Source: an uncultured Dehalococcoidia bacterium
Lineage (GTDB): Bacteria; Chloroflexota; Dehalococcoidia; Lucifugimonadales; UBA1127
Length of the DNA stretch: 64,000 nucleotides
Assembly (NCBI GenBank): GCA_913049785.1
Contig: CAJWXP010000001.1
Span: 44,956 to 108,955 of the forward strand
Direction of reading: 5' to 3'
The translations under genes were made by a program, and so were the position numbers. The notes under the pieces are model-generated. The model saw nothing but the letters and a program-made list of their open reading frames with translations, did not search any database and was not told the DNA's origin. Positions 53,419-57,103 of the stretch are shown here, in pieces; the first letter of the stretch is position 1; each line of letters begins with the position of its first letter.

Positions 53419-54714
53419 CTACTCCCTTGCCATCTCTTCTGTTACCAGGTCTGTGCCCCAAGCCAACGCCTGCGTTGTGGCGCTCCCATCAAGGTCGCTA
53501 CGACTGTTCAGGTACCACTCCAATGCCTGTTGTGGCGTCATCCCCTGCGCTTGTGAACCGAGTCGAGGCATCTTGTCATGGATGACCTCTCGACTAACTG
53601 CGGCAATGGAGTGGGCTTCCGACAGCGCTTCACGGATGACCTTGTCGTTGATACGGCTGGCTAGGGTTGACGAGATAGTGATGTGCACGCGCACAACGGC
53701 GTCCGTCACGTTCCTACGGTTGACCTCATGTACCACTAGCGCGGTCGGGTCTTCCTCGTCGTCAGGAATCTTCACATCGATTGTGAGGAATGTCCGCGCC
53801 CGGATAGAGATGTGCTGCCACTGCGTTCGGTCGCCTGCCGGGCCCGTAGGGTCAATCTCAACGAGACAGAAGCCTTTGTCGTCGCCCTCTTCGCTGAAAT
53901 CCACACGCTGCAGGCTGCCGGGGTAGACCACGGGAGGGTGGTCTCCCAACTGCTGGTGCTTGTGTATGTGCCCCAGGGCGACGTAATCGAAGGCGGGCAG
54001 GCCCACGCTGCTACGCTGTAGCGAATAGTCCCTGCCCAGCATCATTGATCGCTCTGAACTGGTGACTGCTCCAGCCACGGTGACGTGGGCGGCCAGGATG
54101 GCGGGTATTGAAGGGTCCAGGGCCTCCGCCTCTTTCAGCAGCCGCTCCGTCAGGTCTGCCTCTACGTAGCGCGCTAGCTCCTCGATGGTCGCGCCACGGT
54201 GCTCGTCCCGTTGCAGCAATGCGCCGCGTCGAATCCACGGCAGTGCCACAATCTGCAGCGGCCCAGAGCGAGTCTCCACAAGTAAGGTCTCCATACGCTC
54301 TGCCACGTGGACTTTCGGCACGCCCAAGGTGGGGAATATTTCCAACGCGGTAGCCCTGCCCAATGAGTGGGCGATGTCATGGTTGCCGGTAAGCAGGAAC
54401 ACGGGGATGCCGCGGTTCGCCAGGGTCGCTATTCGACGGGCAAACTCACGTTGGTGGGTCTGGGATGGGTCTCGACTCTTGTAGGCGTCGCCGGCGAAGA
54501 GGACAAGGTCCACATTCTGCTCTGTGGCGAATTCCACGACCTCATCAAGCGCGACAAGGAAGTCCAGCAAGCGTGTGGAGAGGCCGAGGTAGGTGCGCTT
54601 GCGGTCCACGCCTGGGGCAAAGTAATCGGGCATCGCCTCAAGATCGGACTCCGTTGTTGGCCGTCCGTAGTTCTCAACGCCTATGTGGATGTCCGCCAGG
54701 TGGAGGATACGCAT
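53419..54714 (-). CDS. sbcD: SbcD/Mre11-like DNA repair metallophosphoesterase
   Basis: 431 residues. Motifs of the calcineurin-like phosphoesterase: LADIHIGVENYGR (DxH), VLFAGDAYKSRDPS (GDxxD-like), LLTGNHDIAHS (GNHD), LAAHVTV and VALGHIHKHQQLG (GHxH). A longer C-terminal region (about 280-431) follows. It is a dinuclear Mn nuclease that acts on DNA ends with the SMC-like ATPase SbcC/Rad50. No sbcC gene is adjacent. Confidence 0.85.
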   Translation of the reverse strand: MRILHLADIHIGVENYGRPTTESDLEAMPDYFAPGVDRKRTYLGLSTRLLDFLVALDEVVEFATEQNVDLVLFAGDAYKSRDPSQTHQREFARRIATLANRGIPVFLLTGNHDIAHSLGRATALEIFPTLGVPKVHVAERMETLLVETRSGPLQIVALPWIRRGALLQRDEHRGATIEELARYVEADLTERLLKEAEALDPSIPAILAAHVTVAGAVTSSERSMMLGRDYSLQRSSVGLPAFDYVALGHIHKHQQLGDHPPVVYPGSLQRVDFSEEGDDKGFCLVEIDPTGPAGDRTQWQHISIRARTFLTIDVKIPDDEEDPTALVVHEVNRRNVTDAVVRVHITISSTLASRINDKVIREALSEAHSIAAVSREVIHDKMPRLGSQAQGMTPQQALEWYLNSRSDLDGSATTQALAWGTDLVTEEMARE

Positions 54715-54823: not shown

Positions 54824-55171
54824 CTAGAGCTCCATGACGCGACGGAGCCACTGGGCAAGGCCTTCCATATCGCGTCGAGAGATGCCACCTAGGCGTCGCA
54901 GCAAATGGGATGACCTCAGCGTGGCGAGCCGGGCACGCACTGTGCTGGGGCCAAGGAGTCCGGCATCTTTCCAGTCCATCAGGGCGTAATCGCCGATGCG
55001 TGGTGCTGCGCGACCGTGGCCGGTTATCGGCGCGATGACCACTTCTCCGGTGCCGCTGTTGTAGTAGTCACCGCTGACGACCACCGCAGGACGGCGCTGG
55101 TTCGCCGACGGCGAGTTCAGGGGGAATGGCACGAGCACGATATCGCCGTGGTGGACGTTAGAGACGGTCAT
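54824..55171 (-). CDS. MazF/PemK-family toxin ribonuclease
   Basis: 115 residues. The sequence VHHGDIVLVPFPLNSPSANQ, RRPAVVVSGDYYN and VVIAPITGHGR follows the MazF/PemK/CcdB barrel; the Arg in QRRPAVV and Thr in PITG lie at active-site positions. These toxins cleave mRNA at short sequences. Its start lies within the last 14 bases of the upstream antitoxin-like gene, the normal order for a toxin-antitoxin operon. Confidence 0.85.
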   Translation of the reverse strand: MTVSNVHHGDIVLVPFPLNSPSANQRRPAVVVSGDYYNSGTGEVVIAPITGHGRAAPRIGDYALMDWKDAGLLGPSTVRARLATLRSSHLLRRLGGISRRDMEGLAQWLRRVMEL

Positions 55172-55580
55172 AGGCGTTGTCCTCAGGGCTGTCCCAGTCC
55201 GTAGTGAAAGTCTCGTCAGAGGCTGACACTAGGGCGGAGGCCTCTTCCTGGAGGCTCAACTCTTCAACGGCTTTATGGGTGGCGACGTAGAGGTCCTTGC
55301 CTGTAGTGCGGGGGAACTTCTCAATGAAGCCGGATTTCACCTGTTGGCCTATCCACTGGTGGGGGGTGTCGTGCTGGTCCAGGAGGGCGAAGAGGCCTTT
55401 CTGGTCGAGGCCACCTGTAGCGTACAGTCGAGTCAGCAACTCACGGCGACGTCGATAGAAGCGTTCCATGGTGTTCTCGAGGGGTGCCCCAAGGAGTTCC
55501 TGAAGCTTATCCACAGTCTCCCGAAGGGCCCGGAGGCAAGCGACAACCTGGTCGTTTTGGTACGCAGAATTGTCATTCAT
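55158..55580 (-). CDS. antitoxin-like protein of the MazF module
   Basis: 140 residues from ATG 55580, which has AGGAGG seven bases upstream; the open frame extends to 55649 without support. The C-terminal tail DETFTTDWDSPEDNAYDRL is acidic with Trp and Tyr, as in tails that thread into MazF-type toxins. The first ~110 residues are unusual for an antitoxin: coiled-coil-like CLRALRETVDKLQELLGAPL, then ERFYRRRRELLTRLYATGG and a region (LDQKGLFALLDQHDTPHQWI, GFIEKFPRTTGKDLY) that looks like a winged-helix. It probably represses its own promoter. Confidence 0.7.
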   Translation of the reverse strand: MNDNSAYQNDQVVACLRALRETVDKLQELLGAPLENTMERFYRRRRELLTRLYATGGLDQKGLFALLDQHDTPHQWIGQQVKSGFIEKFPRTTGKDLYVATHKAVEELSLQEEASALVSASDETFTTDWDSPEDNAYDRL

Positions 55581-55729
55581 ATGCTTTCCTCCTGGAATCC
55601 GATTCGTGTTGCGGCGGGGGTATTGTAACAGGAGAAAAGGAAAGGGCAAGTGGTTTTATGTCCTGTTTATAAGACTCTCCAATATTGGTGAGGAAACAGA
55701 AGATTGAGACGTCACAAATCGGTAAAATG

Positions 55730-57103
55730 CTACCCTAGCCGCTCCCCAAGTATGCTAGCCAGGTCAGCAATTGCCACCCGGTCCTGCACAAGGGTGTCCC
55801 GGTCACGGATGGTGACCTGGTTGTCCTCCAGCGAATCGAAGTCCACGGTGACGCAGAATGGCGTGCCAACCTCGTCGAAGCGACGGTAGCGGCGTCCGAT
55901 GCTCTGGGCGTCGTCGTACTCCACGTTCCATCGACCGGTTGCAATCAGGCTTGCGTAGACCTCGCGGGATAGCGGTGTCAGCTTCTCATTGCGACTCAAG
56001 GGCAACAACGCCACTTGCACAGGGGCTATGGACGGGTGGAACTTCAGCACCACCCTGGTCTCGCCCTTCCCTGCGCCGGCGGAGTCACCGCCCACCTCTT
56101 CCTCTGTGTAGGCGTCCAAAAGGAACATCAACGCCAACCGATCGACTCCCACTGCCGGCTCGATAACGTACGGGTGGTAATGCTTCTCTTCAGCTGGGGA
56201 CTGTTCATCGAAATAGGTCAGGCGTGTGCCACTATGCTCCGAGTGCTTCTTGAGGTCGAAGTCTGTGCGGTTGGCTATGCCCTCCATCTCGCCCCATCCC
56301 CAGGGGAAGAGGTACTCGATGTCCGTGGTGGCCTTGGCATAGTGGGCGAGTTCAGCGGTCTCGTGGACGCGCAGTCGCAGGTTCTCCTTACGGATACCGT
56401 GGCGTAGGTACCACTCGAAGCGCAGGTTGACCCAGTACTCGTGCCACTCATCGTCGTTGCGTTCTCCCGGCTGCAGGTGCTCCGGCGGCTTCGCGAAGAA
56501 CTCCATCTCCATCTGCTCGAACTCTCGAGTACGGAAGATGAAGTTTCCGGGAGTGATCTCGTTACGGAAGGACTTGCCTATCTGGGCGATGCCGAAGGGC
56601 AGCTTCTTGCGTGTTGCTGTCTGGATGTTGAGGAAGTTTACGAACATACCCTGGGCGGTCTCGGGGCGCATGAATACGGTGCTGGCCGTGTCTTCCACCG
56701 CACCCAGGAAGGTCTTGAGCATTAGGTTGAACTGCCTCGACTCGCCTAGCTCCCCGCCACAGTCGGGGCACTTACCAGATTCGACATGATCCGAGCGAAA
56801 GCGGTGCTTGCACTCCTTGCACTCGACCAGGGGGTCTGTGAACCCTGAGAGGTGACCGCTGGCCTCCCAAACGCTGGGGTTCATCAGGATCGCCGCGTCT
56901 AGGCCCACCACATCGTCGCGAGTACGTACAACCTCTCGCCACCACGCCTCTTTCACGTTGCGCTTCAGCTCCACACCCATTGGGCCGTAGTCCCAGGCGT
57001 TGGCCAGGCCGCCGTAGATCTCACTGCCGGGGAAGACGAAGCCACGACGTTTACATAACGATACAATCTTGTCCATGGTGACGGCTGAGGACGCTTCGGT
57101 CAC
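55730..57103 (-). CDS. glyS: glycyl-tRNA synthetase (single-chain dimeric type)
   Basis: 457 residues. The class II motifs are seen: GFVFPGSEIYGGLANAWDYG, motif 2 FRNEITPGNFIFRTREFEQM, and motif 3 near VGVDRLALMFLLDAY. A zinc-binding CKECKHRFRSDHVESGKCPDC lies in the insertion. The C-terminal anticodon domain follows (APVQVALLPLSRNEKLTPLS). It is the alpha2 type found in eukaryotes, archaea and some bacteria, not the alpha2beta2 type. Confidence 0.95.
   Translation of the reverse strand: MTEASSAVTMDKIVSLCKRRGFVFPGSEIYGGLANAWDYGPMGVELKRNVKEAWWREVVRTRDDVVGLDAAILMNPSVWEASGHLSGFTDPLVECKECKHRFRSDHVESGKCPDCGGELGESRQFNLMLKTFLGAVEDTASTVFMRPETAQGMFVNFLNIQTATRKKLPFGIAQIGKSFRNEITPGNFIFRTREFEQMEMEFFAKPPEHLQPGERNDDEWHEYWVNLRFEWYLRHGIRKENLRLRVHETAELAHYAKATTDIEYLFPWGWGEMEGIANRTDFDLKKHSEHSGTRLTYFDEQSPAEEKHYHPYVIEPAVGVDRLALMFLLDAYTEEEVGGDSAGAGKGETRVVLKFHPSIAPVQVALLPLSRNEKLTPLSREVYASLIATGRWNVEYDDAQSIGRRYRRFDEVGTPFCVTVDFDSLEDNQVTIRDRDTLVQDRVAIADLASILGERLG

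What the first reader, a model, noticed from the sequence alone, without database searches (positions are those of the whole stretch)
54824..55580. MazF-type toxin with an unusually large antitoxin
Typical MazE antitoxins are ~75-85 residues. This partner has 140, with a coiled-coil-like start and a possible winged-helix before the usual acidic Trp/Tyr tail (DWDSPEDNAYDRL). It could be a new antitoxin family with a different DNA-binding domain.
Basis: partly seen in the sequence, partly recalled or inferred. Interest (0 to 1): 0.5.

Follow-up and report, generated by a model that had tools for sequence, protein, structure and literature searches.

The report
MazF antitoxin with an unclassified head
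This is a two-gene bacterial poison-and-antidote pair whose RNA-cutting poison belongs to a well-known family, but whose antidote carries a front domain that matches no catalogued family, joined to a toxin-grabbing tail that other antidotes of the same toxin group carry behind quite different DNA-binding domains.

Summary
The window is from a Dehalococcoidia (Chloroflexota) genome. The 115-aa toxin is a PemK/MazF protein. The 140-aa upstream protein matches no Pfam, NCBIfam, PADLOC or PHROGs family. Homologues of its head occur in 17 genomes of six families. In 16 a MazF gene lies directly downstream; the exception has lost both the toxin gene and the acidic W/Y tail. The tail (DWxSxEDxxYDxL) is a separate module: in the same MazF subfamily it sits behind HTH_17/MerR-type, ribbon-helix-helix, Phd/YefM, SWIM-like and unidentified heads. 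Head types changed at least seven times on the toxin tree (ten by parsimony). Best explanation: an ordinary type II toxin-antitoxin pair working like MazEF, with an undescribed antitoxin family. The tail wraps MazF; the head probably dimerises and represses the operon promoter. The winged-helix fold is plausible but only weakly supported: remote MarR similarity is near chance level and AlphaFold models were poor. Unusually for toxin-antitoxin genes, the pair is fixed downstream of glyS in 13 of 17 genomes and between argD and argG in two others. Novelty: new variant of a known kind.

The parts
54824..55171 (-). toxin, MazF/PemK family, 115 aa; Arg27 and Thr50 lie in the conserved RPA and PIT motifs
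   Evidence: Pfam PF02452 E 1.7e-13; R27, P28 and T50 invariant in eight linked toxins; aligned with MazF chains in the PDB
55158..55580 (-). antitoxin, 140 aa, unnamed family
   Evidence: no family; homologues in 17 genomes
55251..55580 (-). antitoxin head, residues 1-110: N-terminal coiled-coil-like helix (about 5-30), then a helix-helix-helix-wing pattern (about 44-107); putative DNA-binding and dimerisation domain
   Evidence: alignment A6: W76, I77, Q80, Y98, T101, A104 invariant; weak MarR similarity; helices 34-54, 60-67 and 73-82 in both low-confidence models
55161..55250 (-). antitoxin tail, residues 111-140, with DWDSPEDNAYDRL; putative MazF-binding segment
   Evidence: shared with HTH_17-headed antitoxins, hhalign 91-94% probability; absent in the one homologue without a toxin
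55158..55171 (-). 14-nt overlap of the two frames; toxin ATG at 55171-55169 inside the Tyr-Asp codons; suggests translational coupling
   Evidence: sequence; the tail stays conserved in L008, L012 and L013, where the frames do not overlap
55622..55649 (-). promoter-like TTGCCC-16-TACAAT with TG before the second hexamer
   Evidence: 1 found, shuffles give mean 1.0; CTTGC and TGxTxCAAT kept in all loci of the genus despite a diverged intergenic region
55627..55667 (.). inverted repeat AACAGGA...TCCTGTT spanning the promoter; candidate operator, weak
   Evidence: shortened in L004/L011 and not found in L005-L007

Best explanation
A type II toxin-antitoxin operon that works like MazEF. The 115-aa MazF cuts RNA; the 140-aa antitoxin made just before it wraps its acidic W/Y tail (residues about 111-140) over the MazF dimer and blocks it. 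The N-terminal head dimerises through its first helix and binds DNA by a helix-turn-helix, probably winged, to repress the operon promoter, more strongly with toxin bound. The antitoxin arose by joining a distinct head to a tail that is used with several other heads in the same MazF subfamily. Shown: both genes, their conservation and linkage, the tail as a separate shared module, the conserved chromosomal position. Inferred: neutralisation, ribonuclease activity, DNA binding, autoregulation, winged-helix fold.
For: MazF by Pfam with the conserved motifs kept; antitoxin first, frames overlapping, promoter-like site upstream; MazF downstream in 16 of 17 homologous loci; toxin and tail absent together in L009; tail shared with antitoxins of known DNA-binding classes next to the same MazF subfamily; purifying selection on both genes; head changes on the toxin tree; remote in-register similarity of the head to MarR-type winged helices.
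Against: The winged-helix fold is not significant by profile comparison (score 20.3 against a best of 20.5 in 100 shuffles), and structure prediction failed for lack of a permitted deep alignment. No operator palindrome is conserved across the genus. No experiment shows toxicity or neutralisation.
Confidence: 0.8

Rival explanations
1. Same toxin-antitoxin pair, but the head is not a DNA-binding winged helix: it is a small helical dimerisation or sensing domain, and regulation is elsewhere.
For: No significant similarity of the head to any DNA-binding family. At least one related partner type has a SWIM-like rather than a classical DNA-binding head, and some have no recognisable head (L054, L085). 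No conserved operator.
Against: Helix-helix-helix-wing pattern with an in-register MarR alignment; the other recognisable heads are nearly all DNA-binding types.
Confidence: 0.3
2. A domesticated regulator: the pair no longer acts as a toxin-antitoxin module, and the antitoxin or complex regulates neighbouring glyS or sbcD.
For: Position next to glyS in 13 of 17 genomes and, where visible, often near sbcD; between argD and argG in two others; a solo head without toxin persists beside glyS in L009/L095.
Against: Conserved MazF motifs in all linked toxins aligned; toxin as constrained as the antitoxin; the pair has its own promoter-like site.
Confidence: 0.15
3. The long frame is an overcalled ORF, or the pair is decayed and functionless.
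For: One homologue has an in-frame TAG near the N-terminus (L008) and one has lost its toxin (L009).
Against: dN/dS of roughly 0.1 over both genes in the genus; strong ribosome-binding site; full-length frames in 14 of the other 15 loci, the fifteenth (L010) being cut by a contig end.
Confidence: 0.03

Closest known systems
MazEF (chpA) / PemIK, E. coli type
   Same: Toxin family; antitoxin-first operon; antitoxin with N-terminal head and acidic, aromatic C-terminal tail
   Different: The E. coli antitoxin is a short protein with an AbrB-type head (PMC4803016); this one has 140 residues and an unrelated head, and the MazE Pfam model does not match
MazF with RHH, Phd, or XF1863-type antitoxins (listed by Makarova 2009, PMC2701414)
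   Same: Same principle of MazF paired with alternative antitoxin heads; RHH and Phd/YefM types even share this tail here
   Different: The present head matches none of the RHH, Phd or AbrB models; XF1863 was not compared directly
Winged-helix antitoxins of other toxins (AbiEi with nucleotidyltransferase AbiEii, PMC3985639 and PMC7319586; GNAT-wHTH GacTA, PMC6929052)
   Same: Possible use of a winged-helix head in an antitoxin
   Different: Different toxins; no similarity of this head to AbiEi Pfam models was found
HTH_17/MerR-type headed MazF antitoxins in Dehalococcoidia (for example L066-L082, and L002 in this same genome)
   Same: Same MazF subfamily and same tail (hhalign 91-94%)
   Different: Head is HTH_17 (E as low as 4.8e-17), not related to this head (hhalign under 1%)

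Membership tests
PemK/MazF toxin family (PF02452) | Match to the family model above its curated cut-off | tested here: met
   51.2 bits against 23.1
PemK/MazF toxin family (PF02452) | Conserved Arg and Thr of the RPxxVxS and PxT motifs | tested here: met
   R27 and T50 invariant in A4; aligned with PDB MazF-like chain 7bye; their catalytic role is from general knowledge of E. coli MazF
PemK/MazF toxin family (PF02452) | Ribonuclease activity and growth arrest | not testable with these tools
   needs an experiment
Type II toxin-antitoxin system | Antitoxin and toxin genes adjacent, co-oriented, conserved as a pair | tested here: met
   16 of 17 genomes
Type II toxin-antitoxin system | Antitoxin protein neutralises the toxin by binding | not testable with these tools
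   inferred from the shared tail and its joint loss with the toxin in L009
MazE antitoxin, AbrB/SpoVT type (PF04014) | AbrB-type N-terminal domain | tested here: not met
   no Pfam match for P0001 or any of 16 aligned family members
Ribbon-helix-helix, Phd/YefM, Xre or HTH_17 antitoxins | Match to the corresponding head models | tested here: not met
   hhalign of the head against HTH_17 antitoxins under 1%
Winged-helix (MarR-type) DNA-binding domain | Significant profile or fold match | tested here: inconclusive
   PDB MarR 5eri E 0.02 with A3 but 0.15 with A6; hhalign 20.3 against shuffle maximum 20.5; models of pLDDT 50 and 45
Tail module shared by this MazF subfamily's antitoxins | C-terminal W-D/N-x-x-E/D-D-x-x-Y-D segment homologous across heads | tested here: met
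   hhalign 93.5% E 2.3e-7, 91.2% E 1e-6; controls against MarR sets and MazF 0.1-0.2%

The most novel reading that the evidence does not exclude
An undescribed antitoxin family with a previously unseen DNA-binding head, part of a Chloroflexota MazF subfamily in which one fixed toxin-binding tail is repeatedly re-fused to unrelated heads (HTH_17, RHH, Phd, SWIM-like, this head), and which in some lineages has become a stable chromosomal fixture of the glyS locus.
Probability: 0.6. Interest if true: 0.5.

Novelty: new variant of a known kind. Interest (0 to 1): 0.42.

Why it matters
It adds an antitoxin family that current libraries miss, so MazF genes beside it would be called orphans. It also gives a clean natural series, one toxin subfamily and one tail with many heads, for testing whether the toxin-binding tail alone fixes partner specificity while the head only sets regulation. 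The fixed position next to glyS in several families argues against the usual picture of toxin-antitoxin genes as short-lived mobile modules.

Tried and rejected
Searches for the antitoxin in phage records, plasmids and viral contigs gave nothing, so there is no sign of a mobile carrier. L016 (677-aa frame) was a chance hit, and L050, L052, L053 and L057 are other proteins with at most a similar DNA-binding-like stretch. A conserved operator palindrome was sought and not found. PDB searches with RHH-headed relatives to find a solved complex with this tail found none. Literature searches for MazF with winged-helix, MarR-type, SWIM or excisionase-type antitoxins found no description in the hits listed; the library is open-access only, and most hits were judged from title and abstract.

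Full report
Observation. On the minus strand, between glyS (55730-57103) and an sbcD-like nuclease gene (53419-54714), lie two overlapping genes: 55158-55580 (140 aa) and 54824-55171 (115 aa). The first starts at an ATG seven bases behind GGAGG. The second starts inside the Tyr137-Asp138 codons of the first. The 115-aa protein is a PemK/MazF toxin (PF02452, E 1.7e-13). The 140-aa protein has no match in Pfam, NCBIfam or PADLOC, and only a non-significant one in PHROGs.

Source. A 91%-identical copy sits in a record titled 'Dehalococcoidia bacterium', placing the window in Dehalococcoidia, Chloroflexota.

Homologues and pairing. Protein and profile searches over relatives, class, phylum and order found the head in 17 genomes: five of the same genus, four of family f14, four of f41, two of f63, one of f98 and one of f105. 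A MazF gene follows directly in 16. In the seventeenth (L009, again beside glyS) there is no toxin gene and the antitoxin stops just before the tail. Toxin and tail are therefore missing together, which is the pattern expected if the tail's job is to hold the toxin. No homologue with a head was found outside the class in the 400-genome phylum sample, where the significant hits were mainly to the tail alone.

Tail as a module. The tail also ends the antitoxins of the wider MazF subfamily. Profile comparison of residues 111-140 with HTH_17-headed antitoxins gives 93.5% probability (E 2.3e-7) with alignment A3 and 91.2% (E 1e-6) with A6, against 0.1-0.2% for controls; the heads do not match (0.4-0.6%). 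Partners with this or a similar tail carry HTH_17/MerR-type heads (most common), HTH_17 with an extra N-terminal domain (including a second MazF pair in this same genome, L002), ribbon-helix-helix/ParD-like, Phd/YefM, SWIM-like, and unidentified short heads; AbrB-headed partners have a more diverged tail. On a toxin tree of 42 sequences the head types need 10 changes (minimum 7; shuffled mean 23.4), and the toxins linked to the present head cluster, with a single origin not excluded. The toxin start lies in the tail codons in many loci, but the tail is equally conserved in L008, L012 and L013, where the genes do not overlap, so its conservation is at the protein level.

The head. Residues about 5-30 look like an amphipathic, coiled-coil-type helix (weak matches to GCN4 variants and designed bundles). 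Residues 44-107 show RRxELLxxxY - QxxLFxLLD - (T)xHxWIGQQVKxGYL - xGxxYxVTxKAVREL, which reads as three helices, a wing and a closing helix, as in MarR-type proteins; the best MarR structure aligns in that register (5eri, E 0.02 with A3 but 0.15 with A6). Profile comparison with winged-helix sets from related genomes gives 20.3, against a best of 20.5 among 100 column shuffles (with A3, 23.7 against 20.9 in 30 shuffles). I regard the fold as likely but unproven. AlphaFold with the sequences allowed gave unusable models, although both show helices at 34-54, 60-67 and 73-82.

Selection and expression. Pairwise dN/dS in the genus is roughly 0.1 for head, tail and toxin (silent sites are near saturation in the more distant pairs). 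A promoter-like TTGCCC-16-TACAAT with extended -10 ends 41 bases upstream of the start codon (one such site is expected by chance in the stretch scanned), and its core is kept in all loci of the genus although the surrounding intergenic DNA is not. A short inverted repeat spans it, but is not conserved beyond the nearest relative.

Position. In 13 of 17 genomes the pair (or, in L009, the solo head) is downstream of glyS on the same strand, sometimes with other genes between, and in the genus and family f14 usually upstream of sbcD; in G119 only sbcD is near, and in G093 the contig begins inside the antitoxin. In two further families it sits between argD-like and argG-like genes (L092, L093). 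Such fixed positions point to long vertical retention. No phage, plasmid or viral-contig copies were found.

Mechanism. By analogy with MazEF (PMC4803016): free MazF cleaves RNA and arrests growth; the antitoxin's disordered tail binds across MazF and blocks it; the antitoxin dimer and the complex repress the promoter; loss of the labile antitoxin frees the toxin. Shown here: gene pair, linkage, tail modularity, constraint. Inferred: toxicity, neutralisation, DNA binding.

Known versus new. MazF partners catalogued in PMC2701414 are AbrB, RHH, XF1863-type and (for a MazF-like family) Phd; the review PMC4803016 groups antitoxin heads mainly as HTH, RHH and AbrB, with Phd/YefM listed beside them. 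Winged-helix antitoxins are known for other toxins (PMC6929052, PMC3985639, PMC7319586). I found no description of this head with MazF in the papers I could search. It is therefore a new antitoxin family within a known kind of system, not a new kind of system.

Noticed in passing
L002:975-1824 (G000 contig C12 near 55522): The same genome has a second MazF pair whose antitoxin (175-aa open frame) has an HTH_17/MerR-type head with an extra N-terminal domain and ends in VWDNAQDGVYDRM.
   Followed up: partly
L074 and L077, ORF just upstream of mazF: MazF partners with a SWIM zinc-finger-like (CxC...CxH) head and the same W/Y tail, an apparently undescribed antitoxin type; the Pfam SWIM match is below cut-off.
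   Followed up: partly
L092:6450-9712 and L093:1012-4333: The same kind of toxin-antitoxin pair is embedded between argD-like and argG-like genes in two families.
   Followed up: partly
L095:7629-7976 (L009): A solo, tail-less copy of the antitoxin head with no MazF, still downstream of glyS; could be a relic or a retained regulator.
   Followed up: partly
L098:6702-8287: A DNA methyltransferase gene and a partner, possibly restriction-modification, are inserted between glyS and the toxin-antitoxin pair in a genus relative.
   Followed up: no
L008:1851-1905 (minus strand): In-frame TAG near the N-terminus of this antitoxin homologue; a downstream start, an assembly error or decay are possible.
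   Followed up: no
L050:1269-1797, also L052 and L053: A family of about 176-aa proteins, with a C-terminal stretch weakly similar to the antitoxin head, encoded downstream of a ferredoxin-like gene and upstream of a phosphoribosyltransferase-like gene.
   Followed up: no
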